Assembly: GCF_030463535.1 (NCBI RefSeq)
Contig: NC_132878.1
Span: 26,236,425 to 26,300,424 of the forward strand
Direction: 5' to 3'
Length of the DNA stretch: 64,000 bases
Source of the DNA: Salminus brasiliensis
Taxonomy: Eukaryota > Chordata > Actinopteri > Characiformes > Bryconidae
Shown: piece by piece, positions 10,496-63,815 of the stretch
Numbering within the stretch: position 1 is the stretch's first letter
How the letters are laid out: each line of letters opens with the position of its first letter
Made by a program: the position numbers and the translations under genes
Notes under the pieces: model-generated
What the model was told of the DNA's origin: nothing
Database searches by the model: none
The model's input: the letters and a program-made list of their open reading frames with translations, nothing else

Positions 10496-10604
10496 CCTTT
10501 TGCAAGAAAAAAAGACAGATTTCTATCAGCTTTAAACTGTAAACACTGCAGTGTTTCTGATTGTCCAGACCTTGTATAGTTTTATCAATTGTCTTGTTAG
10601 TTTT

Positions 10605-10608
<4 letters not shown>

Positions 10609-10636
<28 letters not shown>

Positions 10637-10652
10637 AGTGAGTGAGTGAGTG
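10609..10652. repeat. (TG)n-(GAGT)n microsatellite
   Basis: TG repeats from 10609 to about 10635 pass into four GAGT units and then TG again. Confidence 0.85.
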
Positions 10653-13156: not shown

Positions 13157-13315
13157 AGCTCGTTGCCGTTGCTCCTCCCGTAGCCTCCTTCTGAGTCTGA
13201 AGAACTCTTTGTGTTGCCGAGAGACAAAGTTTACAGCAGCATATTCCAACAACGCAGCGAAAACAAACAGCAAACACACCGCCATCCAGATGTCTATGGC
13301 CTTCACATAGGACAC
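13157..13315 (-). CDS. glra4: glra4 exon 8: M3 and start of intracellular loop
   Basis: This 159-nt exon encodes [20 protein letters not shown] and the rest of M3 ([17 protein letters not shown]), then an Arg-rich segment [16 protein letters not shown]. The donor is gtgagt and the acceptor gttacag. Short TG/CA runs lie just outside both splice sites in opposite sense. Phase 0 on both sides. Confidence 0.97.
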
Positions 13316-13374
13316 CTGTAACATACACACACACACATACATAAACACTTTTTGTAATTGATTTTATTCACTTA

Positions 13375-13625
13375 TTCATTTAGGAGAAATAGTCAGGTGT
13401 GCAGATCTGAAAGGGGTGTCCTGGTCAGCCATGGTAGGTATCTACCGACAGTGGTCCAAGGTGGGACAAATCAAATACTGGCGGCAGGGTTATGGGCGCC
13501 AAGGCTTATCGATAGGTAAGGTTCTACCTGGGTGGAACTGACAAAAGGGCTGCTGTGGCTCAAGTCTCAGAAACATTCAATGGAAGTTATGGCAGAAGTG
13601 CCTTAAAACACACAGTGCAGCACAC
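13375..13625 (+). mobile_element. Tc1-like transposase N-terminal fragment
   Basis: The sequence around TCAGCCATGGTAGGTATCTA, CAGTGGTCCAAGGTGGGACA and GGGTTATGGGCGCCAAGGCT corresponds to the helix-turn-helix region of a common fish Tc1-like transposase (codons like QWSKVGQ and GHGRQGL). Frameshifted. It lies in glra4 intron 7. Confidence 0.65.
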
Positions 13626-14259
13626 CTGCTGCATAGCTGAACACTAGTTAAAGTGCCCATGCTAAACCCTGTCCACCGTCAAATGTCCTGTTTCCTTTGA
13701 CATCACTTAGATGGTGTCCCGATTTGCAGCGGATGCACCTTTCAACTGTCAGGAGTTAAAGGATCTGTCCTATCTTGGTGCCAGATACCACAGAGCACAT
13801 TCATAGGTCTTGTAGAGTTGTACTGGTGGCACATAGATGGAGCTTTCATTAATTGTTATGTGGATTAGTTGTATAGCTCCAGTGCAAAATGAATCAAATG
13901 TCTTGGCGGATTGATTACATTTCAGGCCAAGCCAAAGTGAGGGGGCTTGGTGGATGTGCAAATGCAAAAGAAGACATGCAAAATGTAAACAAGATTAAAT
14001 AATATTACTGTAAATAGATTAGTCTGCATATACCCTAAATTACCCTAAACCTAACCCTGTTTCTATAAAATAAAGTCCCTCAGATCTATTCCTACATTAC
14101 TTTACTCACATTTCCAGACACACTTTCTGAATGGGCTCCTGCAGCCAACAGAGGACACCCACAAATAATACACACATACTTAATTATACAGTTATTAAAG
14201 ATGTGGGTACTGCACACATGCATCCACACACACAGATTCAATGTAGGACATCCACTGCA

Positions 14260-14287
14260 CACAAACACACACACACACACACACACA
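14260..14287. repeat. (CA)n microsatellite
   Basis: Simple CA run in glra4 intron 7. Confidence 0.9.
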
Positions 14288-14524
14288 TTTCGTCATCATG
14301 TAGTGAGACGTTAACCCTAATCATACTGATGACATACTGATGTCTTATGTGGAGTGACTTAAAGATGCCAGTTCAAGGACAATGCCCTCAGAGCGGATTG
14401 AGTATTTCTAGTTGTGCTAAGGGGCGTGAAGGCAGCAGCTAACCACTAATAGCTACAATCAAAGCCATGGCTTGCTGAATTATAGCTGAGGTTTCTGAGC
14501 AATGGGCTAATACACCCCCAAAAC

Positions 14525-15150
<626 letters not shown>

Positions 15151-15289
15151 CTAAATAATATTCTAAACCCAAGTAGATGTTTTGGGCTGTTTAGTGTTTC
15201 CACTAGTTCAGGCAATCTGTATTATATTAATACATAATTTTGACACATTACTACAATTTGAAATTCAACATAGATAAAAGACTTAAATA

Positions 15290-15291
<2 letters not shown>

Positions 15292-15346
<55 letters not shown>

Positions 15347-15388
15347 GTGTGTGTGCGTGTGTGTGTGTGTGTGTGCGTGTGTGTGTGT
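15292..15388. repeat. (GT)n microsatellite abutting exon 6 donor
   Basis: About 97 nt of nearly pure GT (with a few GC steps) ends 2-3 nt from exon 6. In transcript sense it is a (CA)n run that starts inside the 5' splice-site region. Confidence 0.95.
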
Positions 15389-15390
15389 AC

Positions 15391-15528
15391 CAGTGTTGTA
15401 GTGTTTTGTACAGTATCCCAGGTCTTTTTCCTCTTTGAGAACAAACTGAGGCAGCATTAGATCATCAGCCACCTGCACAGGGCCATTATCCAGCCACTGA
15501 AATATCAGATCATTCATAGTATAACCAA
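15391..15528 (-). CDS. glra4: glra4 exon 6: strychnine/glycine-site loops
   Basis: This 138-nt exon encodes [14 protein letters not shown] through [17 protein letters not shown]. It supplies the FGY loop (F191-Y193) and the KHYNT loop (K232, Y234), the glycine and strychnine contacts known from alpha1, plus the first cysteine (230) of the second disulfide. Its acceptor uses a (TC)n microsatellite as polypyrimidine tract. Its donor, gtacac, runs into a (CA)n microsatellite of about 95 nt. Confidence 0.97.
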
Positions 15529-15532
15529 CTGC

Positions 15533-15536
<4 letters not shown>

Positions 15537-15581
<45 letters not shown>
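15537..15581. repeat. (GA)n microsatellite serving as exon 6 polypyrimidine tract
   Basis: 45 nt of pure GA; in transcript sense a (TC)n run immediately before ctttctgcag, the acceptor of glra4 exon 6. Confidence 0.95.
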
Positions 15582-15585
<4 letters not shown>

Positions 15586-16727
15586 TATACACATGCATAA
15601 CTTGTTCCACATAAACAATAAGTCGGTGCTGTCACACAAAAACTTTATATCTCATGTGACATTTTGTCCTTCTCCTCTAAAGTTGCTATTCTGGAGATTT
15701 TTGTTTGTTCACATGTTTTTGCATGACAGCAACAATATACAGCAATATGATTAAATACAGAGATGAAGATACCTACCTATAGAACCTAAAGTATAGTATA
15801 GTAACTAAAGAAGTATTCAGTAAGTGTTCTAAAGTAAAGAGGTGTTTAGTATTTAGTTATTGACATATTTAAATAATATTTAAGTAATTATTCTTTACTA
15901 ATTAAATAAAGTAATAAAGAAGTAAAGTTATTAATTATGTAGTAAGATACTTCAGCAGCAGATTAAGTAAAGAAATATTAAGATATTTAACTAAAGTAAG
16001 TATGAGAGTTACCAAAGGTCTAAAGTAACTAATTAAAGCATCACTAAAGTGTCTAAAACTAAATGAAAGTAATAACTAGACTAAACTTTAACTAAAGTAG
16101 CTAAAACCAGTAAGCAAGTTTACTGTTTACTGTAACAGAAATCAGGAACAAGCATATTATATTGTGAATATTCTGAAGTTTATTGTTTTCTTCTTTTTAA
16201 GTTGTAAATTTGCTTTAAGGATTGTCTGCATAACGTGAATCTGCCTTTCTTTCACAGAAATCTTCAGTCTGTGTGATTGACTGTCACTCAGCTCGGACAA
16301 ATTGGGGTGTATGATCAAACCTCTGATCAGTTTTCCTCAGACCACTTTGACTTGTATTTTAGAGAGCGCTACTACTTTAAATTAAGTAAATAAAATATAA
16401 AATTGTAATCAAATATGCAGAAGTGTCTCTGTAGATCAGGGTTTAATTATTGACCTATTTGCTAGATCAGGTGTGTTGGAAGCCTATTTAACACTAAAAC
16501 ACACAGGGCAGGGGGTCCTGGAAAGCACTGCTCTAGAGGATGTGACTTGTTTACACTGAAAACATAATTAATGCCATTTGACCCAGAGTGCCCTGTAGAT
16601 GCAAACTACTATTGATATCAAAATACAGTGTTTGAGAGGGAAGGGGGGTCCATTAATTCAAACAAAGGGCAGCAAAAAAAATTAACAGAGTAAAGAAAAG
16701 AATTGAAAAGGAGAAGTAAAGTCTCAC
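15582..16727 (-). other. glra4 intron 5
   Basis: About 1.15 kb, A/T-rich, with a stretch of loosely repeating AAAGTA/TAAGTA words at 15780-16110. No exon or mobile element recognised. Confidence 0.6.
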
Positions 16728-16810
16728 AGCTCTCTAGCTGCATGGTGCAGGTCTGAATGTCCATGGGGAAATTCTTCAGATCCATGGGACAGGAGAGAAT
16801 CAGAGTTAAC
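16728..16810 (-). CDS. glra4: glra4 exon 5: Cys-loop
   Basis: This 83-nt exon encodes [20 protein letters not shown] and then CTMQLES. It contains the signature Cys-loop with cysteines 170 and 184, 14 residues apart, and the FP motif between them. The acceptor lies directly behind a CT-rich tract (GA-rich on the plus strand at 16813-16860). The donor is gtgaga. Confidence 0.97.
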
Positions 16811-17016
16811 CTGAGAGAGAGAAAAAGAGAGAGAGAGATGCAGTGAGACAGAGAGAGGGCAAGACAGAGAAGGAGTTGTGACATATTTACACTGCCGTGT
16901 CCTGAGAGAGGTACACACTCCGCTGTCCTGCGGGTTTGTGAGTGTTTAGCCAGGTGACAGACAGCAGGTGCTGCTGATCTGAGAATGTGTTGGAGCAGAA
17001 AAAGACAAACTCAGCT

Positions 17017-17048
<32 letters not shown>

Positions 17049-17519
17049 TAAACATACACACACCTGAACTTCCAGGCACCGAGGTACAAATCTATGGAGT
17101 TCTGAGACCTGCATGAATTTCAGATTGGATGTTTAGTTTGTGAAATATGTTCAGGTCAGACAGATCGAAGTCAGAGTAATACAAACCTCACATGATCCCT
17201 ACTTATTTATAATCAATTCATTGAACGACACATAAGTTAGAATTAAACAAATCAGCAAAAATATGTTCAGGGGTCCATGTGAAAAAGGTAAAAATGTTTT
17301 GTTGTTATTGCAATGCCCATCTCTGAGTAGCAGGTGATGCTGCAAGAATAATATAAGCATCTATAAAGAGTCAAATGCTATACAGGCATTACGTGGACAG
17401 TACAGCGCTAACATGAACCACCAGTGAACTGAACCATAATATAAGCATATATATACACACTAATGTAAAGCTAAGTAAAAGAAAAAAAAAGACAGTAAAG
17501 AAAGTTCATTAATCTAAAT

Positions 17520-17660
17520 AAGGGGTCTTCCGACTGGCACAGCCATCTCGACGTCGGCTCTATCATTGGGAGATCATTAGCCTGATCCTTGGTGATGATC
17601 CTTGATTCATGACTGGGATTCCCACACGACTGGGATTTTTTTGCACGGCCACATAAAAAC
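17520..17660 (+). mobile_element. tRNA-derived SINE fragment (5' region)
   Basis: CGACTGGCACAGCCATCTC, TATCATTGGGAGATCATTAG and GACTGGGATTCCCACACGAC follow the layout of a tRNA-type SINE head. A related head is at 26185. Diverged; it lies in glra4 intron 4. Confidence 0.5.
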
Positions 17661-17867
17661 ATATAAAAAAAAAGAATAACCAAAGAGAGAGAAAATATTG
17701 AAAGTTGAAATATTGAAAAGGATGTTAAAAATGTAATTTAAATGACAGAGTACCAATAAACCATTTTTAACATCGCCCACCAATGCCCCCACTCAGCTTA
17801 ACACGACCAACACACATAACACTGTATAAAGGGGACATCCTAAGTGAATGTGGATTGGAAAGGATTA

Positions 17868-18206
<339 letters not shown>

Positions 18207-41320: not shown

Positions 41321-41392
41321 TTAGTCTTCATGAATGTTGAACAGCTTTGCCACCTCATTCAGATCAGCATGCTCCTCTCCATCTTTAATGAT
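41321..41392 (-). CDS. aifm1: aifm1 exon 19: C-terminus and stop
   Basis: 72 nt encode [20 protein letters not shown] HED and TAA (complement of 41321-41323), matching the human C-terminus [20 protein letters not shown]. The acceptor is ccccctag. Confidence 0.96.
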   Translation of the reverse strand: [23 protein letters not shown]

Positions 41393-41570
41393 CTAGGGGG
41401 AAAAAAACAAAACATGCTCTAACAAGAAAATAAAGCTAAGATGTTTGTAGTAAGAGCCATCAGAAAGAGACATAAGAGGATTTTAGGTTGATTTAGTGAT
41501 GTAGGTTGGCGTTTTAGGCTGATTTAGTGGTGAATTCTAAGTTTTAGGTTGATAGTGTATGTATGTGTAC

Positions 41571-41761
41571 CTTCCTGGCAATGGGCATTCTGTTGAAAAC
41601 ATTCCACAGCACAATGCCCACCACCACTTTATCCCTCAGGTAGAAAATCACTCCTTTTCCATAATCTTCTTTCTGCTGTGTGGAGGGGGGAGGAGCCGTA
41701 GTTTCCACAGCAACAGACCCAGCAACCGCCTCTGTCTCACTCTCTGACCGGATACCCGTAC
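41571..41761 (-). CDS. aifm1: aifm1 exon 18: C-loop and C-terminal domain
   Basis: This 191-nt exon encodes the acidic and Pro-rich regulatory C-loop ([30 protein letters not shown]), then [20 protein letters not shown] and [13 protein letters not shown]. The donor is gtacac, phase 0. The upstream intron holds a Tc1 element. Confidence 0.96.
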
Positions 41762-41856
41762 CTTAGCACAAACACAAATGTTTTACATACGTAATTTCAT
41801 AGCAAATGCGAATAGTTTACTTCCTTGGCATGACCCAAGTACTCTGTGGTTTGCAT

Positions 41857-42993
41857 ATACAGTGCTGTGAAAGACGTCCATCTTTGCATGTGTTACATTA
41901 AATGCTACATCCAAACAATTAACAACACAAACAACTTACACACAGTGTAATTACAAATAAAGACTGATTCAAAACTGATTCACCTTTGGGGGGGGGAAAC
42001 CCTGCCTCCTCAACCAATAAATCAACCAGTTAACCAAATTCAATTGACAATTACAAGCACAAGATGCAGAGTTCTAAAAGAGATTGATATACAGAAAACA
42101 ACCAGTCTGGAAACGGTTACAAAGGCTCTGGTACTCCAGCAAACCCCAGTAAGAACCATTACTCACAAATGGAATAAATGTGGAACAGTGGTGAGCCTTC
42201 CTAAGAGTAGCAGGCCTACCAGAATTTCACTGAGAGCACATCAAGGTTTCCAGTATGTCATAAAAGAACCCACACAAAGTGCAGGCCTTACTTGCTTCAG
42301 TTAAGATTAATGTACATGATTCCACAAAATTAATAAAAAGTCACTGGGCAAAAAGAACACACAGGCTTGTCTCACATTTGCCAAACAATATGTAGAGGAC
42401 CCTCCACAAGATTTCTGGGATAATATTCTGTGGACTAATAAATGAAAGGTTGAACTATTTGGAAGACATGGGTCCAGTTACATCTCCCATAAAGCTAATA
42501 GTGCAATTTACCATAAGAACATCATAGAAACAGTCAAACATGGTGGTGGTGGTGGTGGTGTGATGTCTGAGGCTGCTTTGCTTTTGCAGGACTTGGATGA
42601 CTTGTCATAATTGATGGAACCAAAATCTGCTCTCCATCAGAAAATCTTGAAGAAGAATATCCACCTGTCAGTTTGTGACCAACTCACGTGCAGTTGCTTT
42701 ATGCAGAAGCACACAAGCAAGTCTACCTCTGATCAGCTCAAATGAAATAAAATACAGGTTTGGCCAAGTTCAAGTTCTGACTCAAGACCTTAAACAGGCA
42801 GTGACTGTTTCTCCATGGGTGACAGGTTTTTAACAAATCTTGATCAATAAATGGAATGCTCAAGATCATTTTACTCAAGTTGGTTGTTTCTTTATATTAA
42901 AAGTTGCTGGATGATCTAAACATTTAAATGCAACACATATGCAAAAACACAGGAAATTGTGAAAGGTGCAAATACTATTTCACAGCACCGTAT
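41857..42993 (+). mobile_element. Tc1-like transposon with both terminal repeats
   Basis: The left end TATACAGTGCTGTGAAAGAC and right end CTATTTCACAGCACCGTA are inverted termini. Inside are VTKALVLQQTPVRTITHKWN-like helix-turn-helix codons (42105-42175), AAACATGGTGGTGGTGGTGG (the VKHGGGG block, 42535) and later transposase-like segments, all broken by stops. It lies in aifm1 intron 17 and opposes the gene. Confidence 0.8.
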
Positions 42994-43039
42994 GTCTGGA
43001 GACGAATAAGCGCACATCTCCATTTATGGGTGTGTATAC

Positions 43040-43164
43040 CTGATTGCTCGGTCGCTGCCTTGGGTGTGTCCTTGGCAGTAGCTTTGGCGAACACTCCTAC
43101 AGTAGGGAGACTACTGTCCACTATACCAATGGCCTCATATCCCACATCGGGGCCTAGGTCACTC
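43040..43164 (-). CDS. aifm1: aifm1 exon 17: FAD/C-terminal domain
   Basis: This 125-nt exon encodes [20 protein letters not shown] and [21 protein letters not shown]. The acceptor acag directly follows a (GT)n run of about 33 nt in transcript sense, so it lacks a normal pyrimidine tract. The donor is gtatac, phase 1. Confidence 0.96.
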
Positions 43165-43166
43165 CT

Positions 43167-43168
<2 letters not shown>

Positions 43169-43201
<33 letters not shown>
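43169..43201. repeat. (CA)n microsatellite at aifm1 exon 17 acceptor
   Basis: Pure CA, ending 4-5 nt from the exon; (GT)n in transcript sense. Confidence 0.95.
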
Positions 43202-43203
<2 letters not shown>

Positions 43204-43520
43204 TGTACATTTGAAACTATATTTACGATCAGCCATATTTATCATATTTCTGTAGTTTACCCCCGGGCCAACAGCAACCAGCCACTAAAAACATTCACCA
43301 TTCCACGAAGCAGGAACAGTGCAATTGCATGGGACTTTGCCGCTTGACAAAACAGTCCAAATATGGACACGACAAAGAGCCTAGGGCTTGCTTATGGGGG
43401 GGTGTGTGTGTGAACACGTGCATGCTTAACGCTAGCCTGCCATCACGCACACTAGCATCTACATCACACAAATCCCTCAAACAGCCCAAATATTTAGCCA
43501 CAATCACGTCTGTGTGCCTA

Positions 43521-44692
<1,172 letters not shown>

Positions 44693-44833
44693 CACCCAGA
44701 TGTTGGAGCGCGCCTGCAGCTCGGCGTTGACTCGAAATCCACCAAAGTCAGAGTCGACTTCAAGCCCAGCCGATTTAGCCAGCTCAACACTGGGTTCCAG
44801 ACCTACTGCCGCCACGACATGGTCCGTTTTCAC
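44693..44833 (-). CDS. aifm1: aifm1 exon 15: return to FAD domain
   Basis: This 141-nt exon encodes [40 protein letters not shown] and ARSNIWV, with the conserved VAAVGLEP motif. The donor is gtgagt, phase 0 on both sides. Confidence 0.97.
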
Positions 44834-45711
44834 CTACAGCAGACACACAGGGACAAACAGCAGTTAACACACTGTTGACAGCTATACAGACTCTGCATAG
44901 CAAAGAACCACCCTTTTATCTATGTATCACCCACCTATATGCAAATTTAAACAACACAGAACTAATGTTTGATTAAATGCTTTGTTTGATGAAATGCCTT
45001 AAATAAAATGGCTGCCATACACCGAGGTGAAAAAAAAAAAAAACTAAATATAAAAAATATATTCAAAATATTACAAATTTAAAAGTTGTCTATTAATATT
45101 TTCCAGAGCTGTGCATATTATATCTCCATATCTGTAGTCAAATGGTGGTGTCAATCTGTTTTGGGGCATGTTCAGTTTGGTCTAACAACAGGTTGAAGTT
45201 GTGTAGTGGATGAGCTCTGGGACATTTTTGACTCAGTCAGGATATGAGACATAACCAGTCATTTTATAACTTAAAGGCTTAATATAACTGGCAATTAGAG
45301 CCATCAGTCTGGCTTGTATTATGCTGAGTAATAGGGGGGAGAGAGAGAGGTCCACCCTAACAACCCAGAGTAAAGCCAATTGTGCTTTTTATGGGACCCC
45401 AGTTTACATGTATCTTTGGCAATCTGGGCAACTGATCAGGCGATCTCTTAATGATAAGGTAAACACTGACAAGATAGAAAAAAAAATGTTGCCCTGAAGT
45501 GCATTATAGGCTCTGCCATTATAGGCAGACTGACCTTCAGAAAAGAGCACTTTAAATCATCTCAGTGTCAGCTGCTTGTACCGCAACACAGTGTTTTTTC
45601 ATAAATGACAAGATAGACAAAACAAGTAATGAAGTTCAGACATCTATATATAAGATTAACCACGGCCATCCCTGATGTTTGAGCCCCACCCTGTCATGTC
45701 CGTAGACTCAC
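44834..45711 (-). other. aifm1 intron 14
   Basis: About 0.9 kb, A/T-rich. A SINE-body-like piece (AGTAAAGCCAATTGTGCTTT near 45370) is the only repeat noticed. Confidence 0.6.
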
Positions 45712-45800
45712 CACTCGGCCATCCTTCAGCTTAATCTCCACTTTGTCATCCTTGTAGCTGACGTTCTTCACCACAGCCTCAGTCAGCACCTTCACACCCT
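45712..45800 (-). CDS. aifm1: aifm1 exon 14: NAD domain
   Basis: This 89-nt exon encodes EGVKVLTEAVVKNVSYKDDK and VEIKLKDGRV. The acceptor is cccgacag and the donor gtgagt, phase 0. Confidence 0.96.
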
Positions 45801-46242
45801 CTGTCGGGGGCAAGAAAGTCAGTTCAGGACAGACTGGTTTCACTGGTACCAAGTGTTGAAGCAACTAAAACACAACTTAAAAAAAACATTAAACTAAACC
45901 ATAAACTGTGCACCGATGTAATTCACAATTTTTATAATAGTTATTACAATTATATCAGTATCAGCAGATACAAAAATTACATAAAAAAACACAAAACACT
46001 GGACAGATGTTAAGATGTAACGAATATTACAAGCCGTTATTTTAAGTGTTTATTGAACTTTATAAGAGCAGAATGATTAGATGACGCTGCCAAATAAAAG
46101 GCAGATCTGTTCACTGCAGATCTGTTTACTGCATCTGTAACTGAAATTGATGTTCTATTTTTCTGTAATGCTGAGCAAAGTGGATTTTATTAAATAATTT
46201 TATATGGGCTTACATTCCCACATCCCTAATTATATTTGTCAC

Positions 46243-46350
46243 CTTTCTTGACTTTCTCTGTCGTCCAGTTGCTCAGGTATTCAGGTAGAACTTTCCCCAT
46301 GTTCCCTTTCTCTGGAAACATCTGGACCACCTCCAGGCCCAGGTCAGCAG
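46243..46350 (-). CDS. aifm1: aifm1 exon 13: NAD domain
   Basis: This 108-nt exon encodes [20 protein letters not shown] and [15 protein letters not shown]. Both borders are canonical (ctctgcag, gtgaca). Symmetric phase 1-1. Confidence 0.97.
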
Positions 46351-46741
46351 CTGCAGAGGAAAACAGCAAGAAGAGTTCCAGCTGCTACAGAGGTCTTAGA
46401 AGTCTTTATGCTGAAATCTCAAAATTTCAGAAACCTTGAAATTAATTTCTCAATCTCCAATTAATTACTGTCTTTCCCCTCCCAATAATGAACCACCCAT
46501 TTGCACCAACTAAAAAGATGCAAACACTGATAGCTGGGGGAACAAATATAAATAAATAAAACACCCCTCTAAACAAGCATGTTTGCCTCCCTCCTCATTA
46601 TGAGGGACACCCACAGTGACTAATCTGCTTCTTGTCATTTATATATTTATTTATTTATGTATGTATAAAGGTGGTGATCCGAGTGCATTGACCCGATTCC
46701 GGCTGTTTGACTGACAGCTGAGTGATGGTGTTTGGACTCAC

Positions 46742-46850
46742 ATCTTCTGCCCAAGGCGCAGGCCAGCTCACTGCCCAGAAAGCCTCCTCCGATGATGGTG
46801 ATGGACTTTAGTTCGCGTGACACTTTCTCCAGCGCTTTGAAATCCTCAAT
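46742..46850 (-). CDS. aifm1: aifm1 exon 12: NAD-binding Rossmann motif
   Basis: This 109-nt exon encodes [20 protein letters not shown] and [16 protein letters not shown]. It holds the GGGFLGSE dinucleotide loop, with Phe and Glu equal to human F310 and E314. The acceptor is ttctgcag and the donor gtgagt, phase 1. Confidence 0.97.
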
Positions 46851-47424
46851 CTGCAGAAAACAACAGGAAAGAAATGAGGGCTGGAAAGAACAAAGGTTGG
46901 AACTTGAAAAGCATTCAAATGAAATAATTTAAGGAGATGCTTTAATGCTCGAGTGTCTTGTGGAAAGGAAGGAGGGGGAAATAAATAAATAAATAAATAA
47001 AATCAGACTGCTGTCAGAGCTCATAAGGTTGCATGCAGTTTGCACAGGAGATGGGAGTGACAGTGCCTTCTAGTGGCTACATAACACACATACACAGAAA
47101 GAGCCCTTCACACAGTTTCCTAAAACCAAATGCTTCGTTTTACTAGCTGCAGCACCTTTCTGTGGTACTATACCCGTACAGACTAGCACAATCAAAACTG
47201 AGGGGAGTAGATTAATGCACACGTTAAAGAAAACCAAATCACAGCGCATTCTCTGGATGTCCCTAGTGACTCAGCATTGGGGGCTGATCCAGACATTTTT
47301 AATGAATCGGGTACTGGTTTTTAAGGAGGAGGCTAATGCAATGTAATTTTTCTCTAAATTGTATGTGATGCATCTGCACAAAATAGTCCAAGTTGTTGAA
47401 GTGAAGTTGAAATGAGAAAAATAT

Positions 47425-48640
47425 ATATAAAAAAATGTGTGGAAATGTGCATATGTATTCACCCCCTTTGCTATGAAGTAAAAAGTTCTGGTGTAACCCA
47501 CTACCTTTAGAAGTCCACCTGTGTGCAATCTAAGTGTCACATGATCTGTCAGTATACACACCTTTTCTGAAAGGGCCTAGAGGCTGCAACACCATTAAGC
47601 AAGAGGCACCACTAACCAAACAACACCATGAAGACCAAAGAGTTCTCCAAACAAGTCAGGGACAAAGTTGTAGAGAATTACAAGTGGTTGTCTTATAATT
47701 CTATTTATTTATTTATTTATTTTTAAATCTCAAAATCTCTGATGATCCCCCGGATCAACTCAATCATCAAATAGAAAGAATATGGTACCACAACCAACCT
47801 GTCAAGAGAGGGCCAGTCACTAAAACCCTCAGACCAGGCAAGGAGGACATTAATCAGAGAGGCAGTACAGAGGTAAAGCACCAAAGGTAACCCTGAAGGA
47901 GCTGCAGAGTACCCAAGCAGAGACTGGAGTATCTGTCCATACGACCACAATAAGCTGTACAATCCACTGAGCTGGGCTTTATGGAAAAGTGGCCAGAAAA
48001 AAGCCTTTCCATACAGACAAAAAGAGGTAGCCTCATTTTGAGAAAAGGCATGTGGAAGACTCCCCAAATGTATGGAGGAAGGTGCCATGTCTGGCGCAAA
48101 ACAAACACCTCATCACCCCAAGAACACCATGCTTTTAAGCAGCAGGGACTGGGAAACTGGTCCGAGTCGAGGGGAAGATGGATGGTGCTGAATATAGAGA
48201 TATTCTTGTTTCAGTCTGTCAGTGACTTGGGATAATGATGGAGGTTCACCTTCCAACAGGACAATGACCAAAAGCATACTGCTAAAGTAGCACTTGAGTG
48301 GTTTAAGTGGTAACATGTAAATGTATGGGAATGGCCAAAAGTCAAAGAGTCAAAGCCCAGACCTTAATCCCATTGAGAATCTGTGGTCAGACTTGAAAAT
48401 TGCTGTTCACCAACAAAAAAACATCTAACTTGAAGGAGCTAGAGCAGTTTTGCTTTGAGGAATGGGCAAAAATTCCCAGTGGTAAGATGTGGCAAGCTCA
48501 TAGACACTTATCCAAGACACTTATCCAATGCTGCTAGATATTTTTTTTGTTAATAAATGTAGTTTTGCTAGTGCATTTTATTTTTCACTTGTTTGCAAAC
48601 CTCAAAGAAAGTATAATGATAAAATGTCATGTATTGTAAA
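47425..48640 (+). mobile_element. Decayed Tc1-like transposon
   Basis: Landmarks in order: GTATTCACCCCCTTTGCTAT (left end region), CAGGGACAAAGTTGTAGAGA, AGCAGCAGGGACTGGGAAAC, CAGGACAATGACCAAAAGCA (QDNDPKHTA, catalytic Asp block), AATCCCATTGAGAATCTGTG (NPIENLW block). Stops and frameshifts throughout. In aifm1 intron 11, opposing the gene. Confidence 0.8.
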
Positions 48641-48644
48641 AGAT

Positions 48645-48745
48645 TTTACATTTACGGCATTTAGTTGACGCTCTTATCCAGAGCGACTTACAAGGTTACT
48701 GGTTACTGGTTACAAGGGAGGGCCAATGTAGTAAAGGTGCAAAAG
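48645..48745 (+). mobile_element. Fish dispersed repeat 'gacgctcttatccagagcgac'
   Basis: TTTACATTTACGGCATTTAG and GACGCTCTTATCCAGAGCGA form a segment found in very many teleost sequences. Short fragment; no ends defined. Confidence 0.6.
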
Positions 48746-49002
48746 GTGCACATATTTGTCACTGTGCAGTGTACACTGCACAGCGAAATGTGTCCTCCGC
48801 ATTTAACCCATCTGTGGTAGTGAACACACACACTAGTGAACTAGGGCCAATGAGTACACACACACCCAGAGCGGTGGGCAGCCAACTCCAGCGCCCAGGG
48901 AGCAGAGAGGGTAAAGGGCCTTGCTCAAGAGCCCAACAGTGTGAATCAAACCCACAACCTTGTTATTGACAGCCCGGTGCTCTAACCGCTGAGCCACCAC
49001 TG
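48745..49002 (-). mobile_element. tRNA-derived SINE
   Basis: On the minus strand, GTGGCTCAGCGGTTAGAGCA (A box) is followed by GGTTGTGGGTTTGATTCACA (B box), then a SINE body (GAGCAAGGCCCTTTACCCTC) and a tail (GGTTAAATGCGGAGGACACA). A complete RNA polymerase III head is present. In aifm1 intron 11. Confidence 0.85.
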
Positions 49003-49140
49003 CCCCTGTTAGGAGTCTTGCCCAAGGACTTTTATTGGTGTAGCGCAGCATAGCCACCCAGACCTGGAATCGAACCCCAGTCTCCCACATGGTGTGGCAG
49101 CTCAGTGGCAGGTACTGATGTTATCTGTTGCGCCACACCA
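49003..49140 (-). mobile_element. Second tRNA-derived SINE, different family
   Basis: On the minus strand GGTGTGGCGCAACAGATAAC (A-box side) leads to ACTGGGGTTCGATTCCAGGT (near-perfect B box) and ACACCAATAAAAGTCCTTGG. It abuts the previous SINE with almost no gap. Confidence 0.8.
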
Positions 49141-49272
49141 ACCACAGATTTTCTTCTCACCCCTAATTTAAAACACTTCAAACATTACAAATTATTCAGT
49201 CATCCTGTAGATACCATTCCTGCCACCACACAGTCCATAAAATGTACGTGTATGCATGTGTGTATTAAGTAC

Positions 49273-49349
49273 CTTTCTAAAGAGTGTTGTCCTCTTCATA
49301 ACCTCATCACCAGCTCTCTCAATTACCTGCAGATTCCTGGGAATTCCAC
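49273..49349 (-). CDS. aifm1: aifm1 exon 11: start of NAD-binding domain
   Basis: This 77-nt exon encodes [20 protein letters not shown] and TLFRK. The acceptor (cactttag) is preceded by TG repeats. The donor is gtactt, phase 0. The following 2.4-kb intron contains a Tc1 remnant and two SINEs. Confidence 0.96.
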
Positions 49350-49445
49350 CTAAAGTGCACACACAGACACACACAGTGTGGTTAACATCTAGGATATCTA
49401 GGAATTCAGGGTTCATCACAGTGTTTAAGAAATGTTTCTTTTTAC

Positions 49446-49530
49446 CTGTGGCAATGAGGCACTTTTCATAGGAGATCTCTAAACCGTCACTCAATTTAAC
49501 CTTATTCCCCCGGACATCCATATGCACCAC
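49446..49530 (-). CDS. aifm1: aifm1 exon 10: FAD domain, ATG motif
   Basis: This 85-nt exon encodes [20 protein letters not shown] and YEKCLIATG, with the LIATG motif that closes the first FAD segment in this oxidoreductase superfamily. The donor is gtaaaa, phase 1. Confidence 0.97.
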
Positions 49531-49683
49531 CTAGAGAACACACACACACAGATCTACACATTCCCACATGCTGCTTTTTTGCTGAATCTAACACATTCGA
49601 AGACTTTTGCCAGAAGTGTCAGATCCTGGCCTGAGGGCACAGAAGCTGTAAACTAAGAAAGTGCTGAGGTCAGCCATTTTCAC

Positions 49684-49774
49684 CTTCTTGCCGGTCAGCA
49701 CAGCCACGCCTCCATTCTCCACCGACTCCAGCTCAGTGGGGCTCACATAGAACGTGGGAGGTTGGAAATAAATA
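49684..49774 (-). CDS. aifm1: aifm1 exon 9: FAD domain
   Basis: This 91-nt exon encodes [20 protein letters not shown] and [10 protein letters not shown]. The acceptor is tttgacag and the donor gtgaaa, phase 0. Confidence 0.97.
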
Positions 49775-50425
49775 CTGTCAAATAAAAACAATAGACACAA
49801 AGCCTTTTGAAACATTTATAACATTCAGAGCTCACTCACATGTAGGTATTTATGAATGATGCAGCTGGTGTGGGACATGGCTACGCAAGTACTCGAACAT
49901 GTGTGTGATATACAAGACAAACGCATTATGCAGTCCTTAACTACCCATTTACATATGACAACACTGAACTTAATTACAATTTTAATGTGATGTACATCCT
50001 GAAACTTGTCTATTGCTGTCTTGTGATGCTCAATTGTATCACACTGACCTAAATTCTGTGACTACATTAGTCAGGCCATAGCACAGAAACCCTCTAAGCA
50101 CTTTACAGCTGTAGAAGCTTAAAAAAAGAAACTAAACTACACAAAAACAGGGAGGATGTCAAAATCAATGTGACAACTGCAGCAAAACCCTTCTGCTGGA
50201 ACTGGGTGTAAACAGAAAGAAAACAAAAATGCTCATCTAGGTCCTGCATCCCACTTAGCATAGAACTATATATATATATATATTGTAAAGAATGAATATG
50301 TAAAAGAAAAGTCATGGTATAAGCGTTTAAAAACATCAATTTACAATATTTTGTTACCAAACTTCTGCACATTTCAACTCCCCCCCCCCCCCATCAGCTC
50401 TGAATAACATCTCTTACAAACACAC

Positions 50426-50556
50426 CTCCTCTCCTTGCCATTCCACTGCTTGAAGCGGAGCGTTTCTGTGACTGTGGGATCATCAGAGAACCAAAGCTCT
50501 TTAGAGAGAGGAGGCCTCATGTATGGCAGATCAGGTTCTTCTGTCACAATCAACAC
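50426..50556 (-). CDS. aifm1: aifm1 exon 8: FAD domain
   Basis: It encodes [20 protein letters not shown] and [23 protein letters not shown], almost identical to human. It carries the Lys of PPLSKELWF. The donor is gtgtgt, phase 2. Confidence 0.97.
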
Positions 50557-50807: not shown

Positions 50808-50938
50808 CCTGGCACCAGGGTCACGGGCACGAATGGATCTTGCAGCTGCAAATGATGCTGTGCCACCACCAATCAAGAGGTAGGGGGCGTGTGTGGGCCC
50901 CACTGGTGCAGCCGTGGGAGCAGGAGCAGGTTCAGAAG
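50808..50938 (-). CDS. aifm1: aifm1 exon 7: FAD-binding Rossmann motif
   Basis: This 131-nt exon encodes a Pro/Ala linker ([19 protein letters not shown]), then [20 protein letters not shown] and DPGAR. The GGGTASFAA turn binds FAD. The acceptor is cattttag and the donor gtgagc. The two preceding human-like linker exons are replaced by exons 4-6. Confidence 0.97.
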
Positions 50939-51584
50939 CTAAAATGAAAGAAAGAGGGTTTCAGATAATGCACTAAAACAGAGTTAGTATGCAACTCTGG
51001 CTGCATCATTTCTACTTTCAACACCAACCATCTCTGCAACAGAAAGTTATATGTTGGGGGGTAAAAATGTGGGAGATCATTTCAGGAAAACAGGAATTCA
51101 GGAGCCCATGTGTGAGTTCATAGCATTAACAGTTACCTTAGCATTTATCACACATTTCATCAAAATGCCCTTAAATATAAAAATGCAGCAACTCAACATA
51201 CCAGAGGTGGCCTCTTATACAATATGCTGTTACAATTACAAAAGTGGAAAAAAAATAATAATAAAATTGAGGAAGAAAAATATAACAGGTAGGCCAGGTT
51301 GGAGCAGAGTAGGGTAGACGGGGCATAAGCACAGCAACAATGACCAACAGAAAACAAGAGTCTGTGTCTACAAATAAATAAATTAATTAAAATAAAAAAA
51401 AATACTCAGAATAGACACCCGAATCCCACTTTAAGAACAAAATTCCCCTGATAACTTTAAAAGAGCAAAAAAATCCAAATACCTTAAAAAACATTAACAG
51501 TAATGCTATGGGTACACATAAAAAAAAACCCAAACAAACAAAAAAACCCCATCTGTTTTCATCCAGTTAAAACTGGATTCTTAC
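50939..51584 (-). other. aifm1 intron 6
   Basis: About 0.65 kb, A-rich. No repeat-type exon or mobile element recognised. Confidence 0.6.
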
Positions 51585-51629
51585 CACTTTCTGTTACCGG
51601 TGGAGTCTCAGACACGCTTTCTGCCATGG
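51585..51629 (-). CDS. aifm1: aifm1 exon 6: 45-nt repeat-type micro-exon
   Basis: Between cctacag and gtaaga, phase 1-1, 45 nt encode AMAESVSETPPVTES, the same Ser/Glu/Pro/Val style as exon 5. An alternative in-frame acceptor (caacag) 15 nt upstream would add five residues, a typical setting for NAG-type alternative acceptor use. Confidence 0.7.
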
Positions 51630-51788
51630 CTGTAGGAAGAGGCTCTGTTGGTATTTGCCCACCAACGGAAAAGCACATGGAAATGATTAGCCACAATTCA
51701 AGGAAGGAAAGTCAACAAAAAGAGGTCCTTCATTTGGTCTAAAATATTTGTACATTGTAGATTCCCCATGCAGATGCATCAGGCTTAC

Positions 51789-52133
51789 CAGTAGACACTG
51801 TTTCAGTTACAAGGGCTTCAGTTACAGGTGCTTCTGCCACAAGATGTTCCACTACTGGGGCTTCTGGGACCACTTCCGGAGCAAGTTCTTCTAAAACTAC
51901 CTCAGGGGAAGCCGCTTCTGGGATCACTTCAACTGTGGATGATTCCAGAACTGCTTCAGGGACGGACGCTTCCTGGGTTCCTTCCTCCACAACAGGTTCT
52001 GTAAAGCATCCCTCCACAACAGAGGGTTCTGGGACAGCTTCTAGAGCAGGAGCTTCAGTGATAAGCTCAGAAACAGGAGCCTCTTGGACAGGTTCAGCAA
52101 CGGGAGGTTCCAAAACGGCTTCAGAAACGGGCT
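51789..52133 (-). CDS. aifm1: aifm1 exon 5: Glu/Pro/Val 9-residue repeat exon
   Basis: This 345-nt exon (114 codons, phase 1-1) ends at ACTG with gtaagc. It encodes about 12 tandem units of 9-10 residues with consensus A-P-V-x-E-[AV]-V-x-E, for example APVSELITE, APALEAVPE, ASVPEAVLE, AASPEVVLE and ELAPEVVPE. There is one Cys and no Lys or Arg, so it is strongly acidic and probably disordered or extended. The acceptor chosen is gaattag at 52134-52135, which matches the phase; an alternative at tcagag 50 nt upstream would add a hydrophobic stretch and is less likely. No counterpart in human AIFM1. Confidence 0.75.
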
Positions 52134-52547
52134 CTAATTCCACAGATGGAGCATACACAAGAAATAACTTCAGCAGTGAAATCACTCTGAACTAGTGCTG
52201 GTTGACCAGATGCTACAGGAACGGATACTGGAAAGCTGGGACTACTGTAAGCTGGAATACAAAATCTGTGATGCCTTAACACAACCAAAAAAGCTCCTTG
52301 GGTGGTGTTTCTCAACATCTCTTCATTCTTCACTCTCTGGTTGGACAAGCAGCATATTCTACTACAATCTAATTGTGGTCATCAGTATGAGGCATAATGG
52401 GATAACTGACAATATTGAATTTGTAGAATTGCTTGTGAAAATGAATCATGTAGAGCCAAGTAGAGAAGGACAGGTAATTGTGGGCATCAATTCCACTTTG
52501 TCTTACTATTTTCACATTCTTTAGAAAGGCTTCTTAAGTTTCATGAG

Positions 52548-55685: not shown

Positions 55686-55712
55686 CTTCTGTGGGTTCTG
55701 ACACTGCTTGTG
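55686..55712 (-). CDS. aifm1: aifm1 exon 4: 27-nt micro-exon
   Basis: The acceptor taacgcag is followed by 27 nt and the donor gtgagg. In phase 1-1 it adds AQAVSEPTE to the protein with no frame change. Length and content equal one 9-residue unit of the repeat in exon 5. It is too short to be found by open-frame scanning; support is the splice signals, the phase and the repeat similarity. It could be alternatively spliced. Confidence 0.72.
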
Positions 55713-56809: not shown

Positions 56810-56933
56810 CTGCAGTCTCTGACTGTGTTTTTGCAGGAGCGGAGGTCTCTGATGGTATTTTGCTGGGTCTGCTGGCGAGTTCTGTAATTCGCTCATCATA
56901 CCTTGCTTTATCTCCCGATAAGGTGCGATAAGC
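56810..56933 (-). CDS. aifm1: aifm1 exon 3: post-anchor linker with cleavage region
   Basis: This 124-nt exon encodes AYRTLSGDKARYDERITELA and then SRPSKIPSETSAPAKTQSET. It aligns with the human segment [20 protein letters not shown], where mature AIF is cut free. The acceptor AAG is preceded by an uninterrupted run of 44 T in transcript sense. The donor is gtaagc, phase 1. Confidence 0.95.
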
Positions 56934-58463: not shown

Positions 58464-58594
58464 ATAGACTGCACCTCCTAAACACGTAGCTCCAACCAGA
58501 ACAAAGTAAATGGCATTCTCCCCGCCTCCTCCTGTAGGCCCGGCGGACATGTGGGCCTGCTGGACAAACTGTGGCCTCCTCTCATGTCTCAACA
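58464..58594 (-). CDS. aifm1: aifm1 exon 2: inner-membrane anchor
   Basis: This 131-nt exon encodes LRHERRPQFVQQAHMSAG, PTGGGGENA and a hydrophobic helix IYFVLVGATCLGGAVY, the expected single transmembrane anchor. The acceptor follows an (ATTG)n run (ttttgcag) and the donor is gtgagt, phase 0. Human AIFM1 has two alternative exons at this position; I see one here. Confidence 0.93.
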
Positions 58595-60131: not shown

Positions 60132-60219
60132 CTGCTCTCTTCCCTGCTTGCCGACACACAGTTGATGAGGCTCGGGCCAGCGGGGCTAATTTATTCCACA
60201 CTGTTTTGCATTTAAACAT
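60132..60219 (-). CDS. aifm1: aifm1 exon 1: start and mitochondrial presequence, GC donor
   Basis: The ATG (complement of 60217-60219, A at -3) begins MFKCKTVWNKLAPLARASST and continues VCRQAGKRA, an Arg/Lys/Ser-rich presequence without acidic residues, comparable to the human MFRCGG start. Exon 2 needs a phase-1 donor. No good GT fits, but GCAG followed by gcaagt is a consensus-perfect GC donor in phase 1, so I end the exon there. The open frame continues another 35 codons into the intron. Confidence 0.8.
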
Positions 60220-61965: not shown

Positions 61966-62112
61966 AACTTCCATCGAAGAAAAACACGGAAGAGTCGGGA
62001 AATAACAGACCTTTGACTCATCTCGGTCCAGCCGTTCCCGAAAAACGAGAGAGAGAGAGATACTTTCTCTTTCTACCAACCATGATAAGACTCCTCTCCA
62101 CACAACCCAAAC

Positions 62113-62286
62113 ATGACCGCGGACATTCAGACTAAAGCCGGTTATAATGACCTGAAAGAGGACTCCGGAGGAAGCGCGCAGTCTGGAAGATGGGGCGCTT
62201 ACTTTCTGATTTTGAGTTTGGTTTTGGCCGTGGAAACCTTCATCACAGCCTGTTTTCTGTATGACTTCGCCAGTGACATACACACT
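62113..62286 (+). CDS. TNF-superfamily ligand exon 1: cytoplasmic tail and membrane anchor
   Basis: The ATG at 62113 (A at -3) starts MTADIQTKAGYNDLKEDSGG, a short cytoplasmic tail, then SAQSGRW and a signal-anchor helix GAYFLILSLVLAVETFITAC (about residues 28-50), giving type II topology. It ends at DIHT with donor gtgagt, phase 0. The exon layout here and in exons 2-4 is that of CD40LG and TNFSF10. The frame stays open past the donor into simple sequence, which is not coding. Confidence 0.85.
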
Positions 62287-62546
62287 GTGAGTACGACCAG
62301 ACAAACTGCAGTCTACAGCCTACAGCCCTATAACACCATCTGTGATCATGAGGAAAGACTACAACCACTACTACTACTATTACTACTACCAGTACTAATA
62401 CTAAAATTGTATAAAAATAACTGATTTTATACAATTATCATTTCAAATTGTAAAAAAAAAAAACATATGAGAAAATGCATGTTAACATACTAATATTAAA
62501 TCTAATGAAGTCCTGTGTAGATTTTGTTCCCAGTTTGTAGTTTGTT

Positions 62547-62622
62547 GCGTTCCACCTTAAATGGTGCGGCAGTAAAATCATAATGGCCACGATGTAGCGA
62601 CAGCACTGCTTAAGGTGGAACG
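62547..62622. mobile_element. Palindromic mini-element, copy 2 (CGTTCCACCTTAA)
   Basis: GCGTTCCACCTTAAATGGTGC and GCACTGCTTAAGGTGGAACG are inverted arms around about 35 nt. Same arms as 59906-59970. It is followed by A28, as if the insertion sits beside a poly(A). Confidence 0.75.
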
Positions 62623-62707
<85 letters not shown>

Positions 62708-62798
62708 CATACATACATATAGGTTAATAAAAAAAACACATTCCCATTACTTAAAAACAACATAATATTTGGTTTCATAATTGAGCACATTGCTAGGT

Positions 62799-62860
<62 letters not shown>
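62621..62860. repeat. Poly(A) and two (TA)n microsatellites
   Basis: A run 62623-62648, TA 62652-62703 with TACA steps to 62718, and a second TA run 62801-62860, all in intron 1 of the TNFSF gene. Confidence 0.95.
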
Positions 62861-62862
<2 letters not shown>

Positions 62863-63157
62863 TTGACATGCCAAATACCGTGATTAAAGTATTTGCTTTA
62901 TTTCAGTGCTGCAGTCACCCTCGTTTCAGAGCATATTTGGGACATATATATTATTCATTTATTATGTATATATAATTCTGTTCTTTTAAAGGAAAAAAAA
63001 AAATCTTTTTTTAATGAAGTGATTTTACCTTTGTATCCTTTTTGAAATATATGCATAGTAAAGCTTTTGGGATTGTGTTATTAAGACACATGCCAGAAGT
63101 CATGTTCCTGTTTATATGCAGTTGTTTGTTTCAATGCTTTTCTCTTCACTTTCTCAG

Positions 63158-63292
63158 ACTGATGAATCCCTAAGGCAGGGACTCTACCCCACAGACTGTC
63201 TTTACCATTTCACAGATGAAGATGAGGTGAATGGAGGAGGGATGGCAAGCTGTGAGCTAATGAAGAAAGAATTTCAGAACAGCGCCCATCAG
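63158..63292 (+). CDS. TNF-superfamily ligand exon 2: stalk
   Basis: 135 nt between tttctcag and gtactg encode TDESLRQGLYPTDCLYHFTD, EDEVNGGG and MASCELMKKEFQNSAHQ. Two stalk cysteines (72 and 90) recall both TRAIL (CFLKED...CWQVK) and CD40L (C...NCEEIKSQF). The CELMKKEF block is slightly closer to CD40L. Phase 0 on both sides. Confidence 0.85.
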
Positions 63293-63815
63293 GTACTGGC
63301 CAGGGATGTAAATATTGATATGATTGAGAAAAGGATTCAGAGCATCAGGAAATGTCTATTCAGCTAATTTGGTATTGTTCACAAGGATTCTCCGGGGGAA
63401 AAAAAAGAAATCTTCAGGATTTTGAAGACATGTTCAAAATTCAGAGTTTGGTCCCTAGTTCATATATGCAAAAATAGCGTGTTTGGAGTTCACAGTTTTT
63501 ATAATGTTACAGAAACCATCACATTTACATATCACTGTCACACAAAAGGCTTGTCATGTCAAGTATTTTAACCCTATACAGAGTACACAGTGAAACGAAA
63601 CAACGTTCCTCCAGGACCATGGTGCAACACACAATGTAGACAGTACAGTACAAGAAAGTGTAGCAGGCAGGATACTATAAATAAATCAGTTTGTGAAACC
63701 ACAAACTTTATAAGTGGATCATGGTGGGGTACGGGGGAATGTGCTCTTTCAGTATCACAGATGCTCTGAACATTTGCTGTAAATCAGTCAATCAGTGTTT
63801 TTGTTTCCTGTGCAG

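What the first reader, a model, noticed from the sequence alone, without database searches (positions are those of the whole stretch)
51789..52133. aifm1 carries a 9-residue coding minisatellite between membrane anchor and catalytic domain
Exon 5 encodes about 12 tandem units of consensus A-P-V-x-E-[AV]-V-x-E, a Lys/Arg-free acidic tract of about 114 residues that human AIFM1 lacks. It sits just after the segment where mature AIF is proteolytically released. A long acidic tether would change how far the catalytic domain stands from the inner membrane and how proteases reach the cleavage site. The function is inference; the repeat and its position are seen.
Basis: partly seen in the sequence, partly recalled or inferred. 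Interest (0 to 1): 0.78.

Follow-up and report, generated by a model that had tools for sequence, protein, structure and literature searches.

The report
Long acidic stalk in fish AIFM1
In this genome, probably a fish's, the mitochondrial protein AIFM1 has an extra exon that adds twelve old acidic nine-residue repeats to the stalk joining its membrane anchor to its enzyme part, which may let the enzyme reach further from the membrane than in humans.

Summary
On the minus strand, aifm1 reads as 19 coding exons, 755 residues, no internal stop. Exon 5 (52133-51789, 345 nt) encodes 12 units of A-P-V-x-E-[AV]-V-x-E without Lys or Arg; Glu 5 and Glu 9 are kept in 12 of 12 units. An AIF chain in the PDB aligns to residues 68-105 (weakly) and 258-755, with no chain residue between, so the tract is extra.

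'Minisatellite' fails. Silent sites between units are saturated (pS 0.70; codon-shuffled exon 0.72) while amino-acid-changing sites are held back (pN 0.38 against 0.63; 0 of 300 shuffles as low). Tandem Repeats Finder sees no 27-bp array; it does in a bacterial array of the same 9-mer. This is an old repeat kept at protein level.

Exons 4-6 are phase 1-1; skipping them leaves 611 residues. The acceptors of exons 5 and 6 score poorly, so optional inclusion is plausible. Best reading: an acidic, probably extended tether that stays with the enzyme after OMA1 cleavage. Function, spread among fishes and presence in RNA are untested.

The parts
60132..60219 (-). aifm1 coding exon 1 (start of mitochondrial targeting sequence); GC-AG donor (CAG|GCAAGT)
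58464..58514 (-). exon 2 part coding residues 57-73 of the predicted inner-membrane span (best 19-residue hydrophobic window is 57-75, running two codons into exon 3)
   Evidence: neighbouring residues 68-105 aligned weakly with an AIF chain
56810..56933 (-). exon 3: segment just after the membrane span, including Glu87-Arg88|Ile89, the counterpart of the mouse OMA1 cleavage site (codons 56894-56886)
55686..55712 (-). exon 4, 27 nt, phase 1-1, one 9-residue piece AQAVSEPTE; extra relative to human
51789..52133 (-). exon 5, 345 nt, phase 1-1: 12 units of A-P-V-x-E-[AV]-V-x-E plus TVST; net charge -27
51585..51644 (-). exon 6, 60 nt, phase 1-1, EPLPTAMAESVSETPPVTES, similar composition but no 9-mer above score 8 in the unit scan; weak acceptor
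50808..50938 (-). exon 7: last Pro/Ala-rich part of the linker and start of the FAD-binding domain
41321..50556 (-). exons 8-19: AIF oxidoreductase and C-terminal domains, to the stop codon

Best explanation
Exon 5, with the small exons 4 and 6, is an old, amino-acid-level tandem repeat that lengthens the stalk of AIFM1. The stalk links one inner-membrane helix to the NADH-dependent flavoprotein in the intermembrane space. Shown from sequence: the 12 units, their acidic Lys/Arg-free make-up, their absence from the aligned human chain, saturated silent sites with constrained amino acids, and in-frame cassette geometry (phase 1-1). Inferred: the chain is largely extended and unfolded; at about 200 residues from membrane to catalytic domain it would let the AIF dimer, and the CHCHD4/MIA40 bound to it, sweep roughly twice the distance of the human form (about 12 nm against 5 nm root-mean-square for an ideal self-avoiding chain, human length recalled); after OMA1 cuts at ER|I the tract stays on the soluble enzyme as an acidic N-terminal arm of about 188 residues; and skipping exons 4-6 would give a human-length short-stalk form of 611 residues, so splicing could set stalk length.
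For: Reading frame and exon map. AIF chain 8d3j residues 39 and 40 are neighbours while the matching residues here are 105 and 258. The P488 codon that PMC6905455 places in exon 14 of AIFM1 (passages) corresponds to the Pro of [12 protein letters not shown] in exon 17 here, three exons more (numbering offset worked out by hand from the chain's C-terminus as residue 613). Purifying pattern: pN 0.38 against 0.63 in codon shuffles, 0 of 300 as low, while pS 0.70 is like shuffles at 0.72, 16% as low; same-residue four-fold codons in register identical in 29 of 98 pairs against 27.5 expected, p 0.37. A young array gives a different picture: pS 0.37 against 0.69 shuffled, and 29.2 copies in TRF. One aifm1 locus and one match to the tract were found in the genome, lower bounds. 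Literature passages: AIF anchors CHCHD4 at the inner membrane in higher eukaryotes, whereas yeast Mia40 has its own extended anchored N-terminus (PMC11832770); OMA1 cleavage frees AIFM1 from the membrane and lowers import of OXPHOS-related proteins (PMC13226697).
Against: Charge-hydropathy does not place the tract on the disordered side. A long anchor need not matter: in yeast Mia40, residues 211-283 of the anchor are called functionally irrelevant (PMC4951193, passage). Acceptors of exons 5 and 6 score poorly in a small 17-site model (56% and 85% of the 1193 AG sites in the gene score as high), so the exons may be minor. Third codon positions do match more in register (0.423) than in the other eight registers (mean 0.263); attributes most of this to shared residues, but some memory of duplication remains (unit pairs 1-7 and 4-10). 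The N-terminal alignment to the human chain is weak by itself (9.7 bits). No RNA, no other fish aifm1 and no biochemical data were available here. The silent-site tests cannot date the repeat in years.
Confidence: 0.5

Rival explanations
1. A young coding minisatellite with unstable copy number, neutral or selected for length variation.
For: Nine-residue period is plain; two unit pairs keep DNA identity of 0.78 (units 1 and 7) and 0.74 (units 4 and 10), the next best being 0.70; third positions match more in register than out of it.
Against: Pooled pS 0.70, with 49 of 66 unit pairs at pS 0.6 or more; mean unit identity 0.536; TRF finds no 27-bp array at score 30, while it finds 29.2 copies in the bacterial array L001.
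Confidence: 0.04
2. A disposable spacer: composition (Pro, Glu, Val, Ala; no Lys/Arg) is kept only to stay soluble and unfolded, and length has no particular role.
For: Long, low-information tract; part of the yeast Mia40 anchor is reported functionally irrelevant (PMC4951193); portions of TolA domain II can be deleted until it is too short to span the periplasm (PMC12204202, passage).
Against: Glu spacing of 4 or 5 in 24 of 26 steps despite saturated silent sites is more order than a bare spacer needs; replacing the TolA/TonB central domain by a disordered sequence abolished native function (PMC12204202, passage).
Confidence: 0.25
3. A proteolysis or turnover signal: a PEST-like tract that makes this AIF easier to cut by calpain or to degrade once released.
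For: Two Lys/Arg/His-bounded segments score 7.0 and 8.4 with a PESTfind-style formula written from memory; AIF1 is reported cut by calpains or cathepsins (PMC6315035, passage).
Against: PEST scores are weak predictors; the OMA1 site lies before the tract, as does the calpain site (recalled); another segment of the protein, 674-698, scores 7.6 as well.
Confidence: 0.1
4. An electrostatic docking arm: net charge -33 on exons 4-6 per chain attracts basic intermembrane-space partners such as cytochrome c, or shields the DNA-binding face of released AIF.
For: Charge count, Glu at regular spacing.
Against: No partner evidence at all; inference from charge only.
Confidence: 0.08
5. Not a real exon: open frame by chance or a relic that is spliced out.
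For: Weak acceptors for exons 5 and 6; silent-site G+C of exon 5 (0.31) is low, against 0.54 in the other exons (exon 6 left out) and 0.39 G+C in introns.
Against: Frame open in phase with the gene (about 0.001 by chance); strong donors (9.43 and 8.25); amino-acid constraint implies translation for most of its history.
Confidence: 0.05

Closest known systems
Human and mouse AIFM1 (human precursor ends at residue 613: AIF(78-613) in PMC11832770)
   Same: ER dipeptide at the OMA1 site, FAD/NADH domains and C-terminal domain align; species labels of the PDB chains are recalled
   Different: No chain residue matches 106-257 of this protein in 8d3j, and nine chain residues face 100-260 in 3gd3; human stretch from span to catalytic domain about 44 residues (recalled), here about 200
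Yeast Mia40 (anchored form of the CHCHD4 oxidoreductase)
   Same: Works like: a long stretch between one inner-membrane span and a redox domain that extends flexibly into the intermembrane space (PMC11832770, passage)
   Different: Unrelated protein; in higher eukaryotes the anchor is supplied by AIF; part of the yeast stretch is reported functionally irrelevant (PMC4951193)
TonB/TolA domain II (periplasm-spanning segment)
   Same: Works like: N-terminal membrane helix, central tract that is often Pro-rich, C-terminal binding domain (PMC12204202, passages)
   Different: TonB tracts have Pro-X1-4-Pro repeats; here 6 of 15 Pro-Pro gaps fit that; no motor partner and no force is implied
Ruminiclostridium sp. 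MAG protein (L001, ORF 738-3617)
   Same: Array of the same 9-mer, mostly A-P-V-I-E-E-V-A-E, between an N-terminal hydrophobic segment (by eye) and a C-terminal region
   Different: Bacterial, no resemblance seen outside the repeats; a younger array by silent sites and TRF; taken as convergence
Deeply conserved protein tandem repeats (PMC3995336, abstract; PMC5120217, abstract)
   Same: Old repeats whose units are individually kept
   Different: Those are proteome-wide surveys; I saw only their abstracts and no mention of this tract

Membership tests
AIFM1 (apoptosis-inducing factor 1) | Pyr_redox_2 plus AIF_C domains in order | tested here: met
   Pfam PF07992 at 279-605 (171.3 bits) and PF14721 at 609-736 (202.5 bits); AIF chain 8d3j E 6.8e-273
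AIFM1 (apoptosis-inducing factor 1) | AIF-type mitochondrial targeting/anchor region | tested here: met
   PF14962 AIF-MLS 32.9 bits on the whole protein, residues 50-202, cut-off 29.9; 33.3 bits for residues 1-123 alone and 35.9 for 1-284, so the tract adds little. The tract alone gives no match. A genome search with this model rang nowhere, controls included, so it is uninformative
AIFM1 (apoptosis-inducing factor 1) | Glu-Arg dipeptide at the OMA1 cleavage site after the span | tested here: met
   RYDER|ITEL here, aligned with RYNERISGL (8d3j) and RYNERVMGL (3gd3); site
AIFM1 (apoptosis-inducing factor 1) | NADH-dependent dimer that binds CHCHD4 | not testable with these tools
   Needs protein
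Coding minisatellite | Head-to-tail DNA repeats detectable as such | tested here: not met
   TRF reports only 15 bp x 2.2 in 51500-52300
Coding minisatellite | Copies share silent sites | tested here: not met
   29 of 98 against 27.5 expected; pS as in shuffled codons; two unit pairs are closer than the rest
Coding minisatellite | Copy number varies among individuals | not testable with these tools
   One genome only
TonB-like Pro-X1-4-Pro rod | Pro every 2-5 residues through the tract | tested here: not met
   6 of 15 gaps between the 16 Pro of exon 5 (counted by hand on the sequence)
Intrinsically disordered tether | Predicted disorder | tested here: inconclusive
   Charge-hydropathy +0.086 (folded side), TOP-IDP 0.29 against 0.11 for the catalytic part; AlphaFold2 coil but for 3 helical residues, pLDDT 64.6, pTM 0.12, single sequence
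Skippable cassette exon | Symmetric phase; skipping keeps the frame | tested here: met
   Exons 4, 5 and 6 are 27, 345 and 60 nt, phase 1-1
Skippable cassette exon | Both isoforms seen in RNA | not testable with these tools
   No transcript data

The most novel reading that the evidence does not exclude
AIFM1 stalk length is regulated in this lineage: splicing of exons 4-6 switches between a human-length stalk and a long acidic arm that sets how far the AIF-CHCHD4 import receptor reaches toward the outer membrane and, after OMA1 cleavage, gives the released enzyme an acidic N-terminal arm that restrains its binding to DNA or basic partners.
Probability: 0.12. Interest if true: 0.72.

Novelty: new variant of a known kind. 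Interest (0 to 1): 0.42.

Why it matters
AIFM1 anchors the CHCHD4/MIA40 import pathway at the inner membrane, and its release by proteases is part of its roles in stress and cell death. A natural, removable, long acidic stalk would offer a direct test of whether tether length and charge matter for import, for cleavage by OMA1 and for the released enzyme. It would also mean that AIF in this lineage cannot be assumed to be released in the same form as mammalian AIF.

Tried and rejected
Minisatellite reading: rejected (with the bacterial comparison in 59, 60). That comparison is one-sided in part: its 23 units were picked by a residue pattern, so its low pN (0.05) is partly built in; the fair parts are pS (0.37 against 0.69 shuffled), same-residue codon matches (1333 of 1780; 200 shuffles, mean 1203, highest 1259) and TRF.

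More repeat units elsewhere in the window: the score matrix, built from the 12 units and so bound to find them, gave its 11 best hits inside exon 5; the best outside was 15.1 at 30159-30133 (an isolated 9-mer soon followed by a stop), and exons 4 and 6 gave nothing above 8. A second aifm1 copy: 13 matches, all at this locus; only the best candidates are scored, so this is a lower bound. Alternative exon 2 with a hydrophobic segment: no candidate under my thresholds in introns 1 and 2; linker-like phase 1-1 exons: 0 in introns 3, 5 and 6 and 5 in intron 4, four of them in 52251-52159. Solved structures, NCBIfam or Pfam families for the tract alone: none. AIF stalk fragments from the PDB against Pfam: no AIF-MLS match, perhaps because they are short.

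Literature on a repeat tract in fish AIFM1: none among the rows listed by searches (at most 20 rows each out of larger counts, none; open-licence PMC papers only). PMC13226697 has a figure aligning AIFM1 downstream of the span with Danio rerio included (legend seen); the figure is not held, so I could not see whether zebrafish has the tract. I recall zebrafish Aifm1 as about 750 residues long, which would fit a shared feature; no call confirms it. PMC12425335 (passages) reports nuclear translocation of AIF in grass carp cells but I saw no sequence there.

Full report
What was checked. The finding places a nine-residue coding repeat in exon 5 of aifm1 at 51789-52133. I rebuilt the gene from the minus strand. 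It runs from the ATG at 60219 to the stop at 41321 in 19 coding exons, 755 residues, no stop inside, with GT-AG introns except a GC donor after exon 1. The protein matches AIF chains in the PDB, best E 6.8e-273, and carries Pyr_redox_2, AIF_C and AIF-MLS in Pfam. The window's own genome (1.07 Gb, 103 contigs) gave 13 exon-size matches to the catalytic part, all at this locus, and one match to the tract; both counts are lower bounds.

The tract. Residues 124-238 read EPVSEAVLE PPVAEPVQE APVSELITE APALEAVPE PSVVEGCFTE PVVEEGTQE ASVPEAVLE SSTVEVIPE AASPEVVLE ELAPEVVPE APVVEHLVAE APVTEALVTE TVST. They hold 27 Glu and no Lys or Arg; 24 of the 26 steps from one Glu to the next are 4 or 5 residues. 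Lag-9 residue matches are 35 against a shuffled mean of 15.1, 0 of 5000 shuffles as high. Three units have ten residues; I dropped one residue from each to align them, a choice that affects the counts slightly.

It is extra relative to human. In the alignment with AIF chain 8d3j (human, recalled), residues 68-105 meet chain residues 2-39 and 258-755 meet chain 40-537, so 106-257 have no counterpart. The first of these two stretches is weak by itself (9.7 bits), so the exact edges of the insert are uncertain; with chain 3gd3 nine chain residues fall in the gap. The P488 codon is put in exon 14 of AIFM1 by PMC6905455 (passages); counting back from residue 613 at the chain's end, it matches a codon in exon 17 here, which agrees with three added exons, 4, 5 and 6. 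All three are phase 1-1 and together are 144 codons, so a form without them would have 611 residues.

It is not a minisatellite. Tandem Repeats Finder gives only a 15-bp, 2.2-copy array in the exon even at score 30. Mean pairwise DNA identity of units is 0.536. Where two units have the same four-fold residue in register, the codon is identical in 29 of 98 pairs, against 27.5 when synonymous codons are permuted, p 0.37; for Glu it is 94 of 133 against 85.2, p 0.10. Pooled over 66 unit pairs pS is 0.70, like the codon-shuffled exon (0.72; 16% of 300 shuffles as low), but pN is 0.38 against 0.63, 0 of 300 as low; 49 of 66 pairs have pS of 0.6 or more. Against this reading: third codon positions match more in register (0.423) than in the other eight registers (mean 0.263), which the synonymous permutation assigns mostly to shared residues; and the pairs 1-7 (identity 0.78) and 4-10 (0.74) are closer than the rest, so traces of duplication survive.

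A comparison array. A genome scan with the tract (557 pattern matches, one confirmed) gave a bacterial array of the same nine-mer, L001. Over 23 units chosen by a residue pattern, pS is 0.37 against 0.69 shuffled; same-residue codons agree in 1333 of 1780 pairs, above all 200 permutations (highest 1259); TRF reports 29.2 copies of 27 bp. Its pN of 0.05 is partly built in by the pattern. So the tests do ring on a younger array. The tract in this window is therefore old and is kept at the amino-acid level, which argues, without RNA data, that it has been translated for most of its history. Silent-site G+C in exon 5 is 0.31, against 0.54 in the other exons (exon 6 left out) and 0.39 G+C in introns.

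Is the exon always used? In a leave-one-out site model from this gene alone the donors of exons 5 and 6 are strong, but the acceptors are weak: 56% and 85% of the 1193 AG sites in the gene score as high. The model is small, and exons 2, 9, 14 and 18 also have modest acceptors (21-45%). With symmetric phases, skipping is plausible. Of the eleven AG sites listed around the start of exon 5, 52133 is the best that keeps the frame (score there not leave-one-out); 52212 scores higher but would shift it.

Physical character. Net charge is -27 for exon 5 and -33 for exons 4-6. The charge-hydropathy index is +0.086, slightly on the folded side, presumably because of the many Val; TOP-IDP is 0.29 against 0.11 for the catalytic part, but under the usual cut-off (scales and formulas written from memory). 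AlphaFold2 on 114 residues of the exon gives coil but for 3 helical residues, pLDDT 64.6, pTM 0.12; with one sequence this is weak evidence. I therefore call it probably extended, not proven disordered. Ideal-chain estimates give about 12 nm root-mean-square for 200 residues and about 5 nm for 44 (the human length is recalled); these are rough.

How it may work. Published passages say that AIF anchors CHCHD4 at the inner membrane in higher eukaryotes while yeast Mia40 has its own extended anchored N-terminus (PMC11832770), that the AIFM1-MIA40 complex has been proposed to position MIA40 near the TOM channel (PMC11452306), and that OMA1 cuts mouse AIFM1 after Glu96-Arg97, freeing it into the intermembrane space (PMC13226697). 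This protein keeps Glu87-Arg88 at that place. The acidic tract starts 35 residues further on, so it would stay on the freed enzyme. The most likely role is a long acidic tether that widens the reach of the AIF-CHCHD4 receptor. Against weight on length, part of the yeast Mia40 anchor is reported to be functionally irrelevant (PMC4951193). I put the tether reading at 0.5 and a functionally indifferent spacer at 0.25.

Comparison and novelty. It is a member of AIFM1 by the three features tested. It works like the TonB/TolA periplasm-spanning segment or the yeast Mia40 anchor, but only 6 of 15 Pro-Pro gaps fit TonB's Pro-X1-4-Pro rule, so it is not filed there. The Ruminiclostridium protein suggests that the same nine-mer can arise independently between a hydrophobic N-terminal segment and a C-terminal region. 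The AIF-MLS model of Pfam has 192 positions and its match runs into the tract (residues 50-202), a hint, no more, that some AIF relatives in that model have longer stalks than human. No row listed in my literature searches described a repeat tract in fish AIFM1, but fish sequence databases could not be searched here, and automatic annotations may already contain it. I rate it a new variant of a known kind.

Noticed in passing
window 52251-52159, minus strand: Just upstream of exon 5, in another frame, lies an open phase 1-1 stretch YSSPSFPVSVPVASGQPALVQSDFTAEVIS with linker-like composition; only 25 bases separate it from exon 5, too few for a normal intron, so it may be an alternative or decayed exon, or chance.
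   Followed up: partly
window 51789-52133: Silent-site G+C of exon 5 is 0.31 against 0.54 in the other aifm1 exons, exon 6 left out.
   Followed up: no
window 60132: Exon 1 of aifm1 ends in a GC donor (CAG|GCAAGT).
   Followed up: no
window about 62622-62547 and 59962-59912: Two short elements with similar inverted ends (CGTTCCACCTTAA...TTAAGGTGGAACG), one in aifm1 intron 1; they look like small inverted-repeat transposons (by eye).
   Followed up: no
window about 48500-47400, aifm1 intron 11: Sequence that looks like a Tc1-type transposon relic, with a tRNA-type SINE next to it at about 49000-48700 (by eye; names recalled).
   Followed up: no
window about 6500-18200, minus strand: Open frames resembling a glycine receptor alpha subunit (name recalled, not searched).
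   Followed up: no
window about 62089-63364, plus strand: Open frames that look like exons of a small membrane protein, perhaps a TNF-ligand-like gene (name is a guess).
   Followed up: no
L001 738-3617: Ruminiclostridium MAG protein of 959 residues with about 29 copies of a 27-bp repeat, most often coding APVIEEVAE, after an N-terminal hydrophobic segment.
   Followed up: partly
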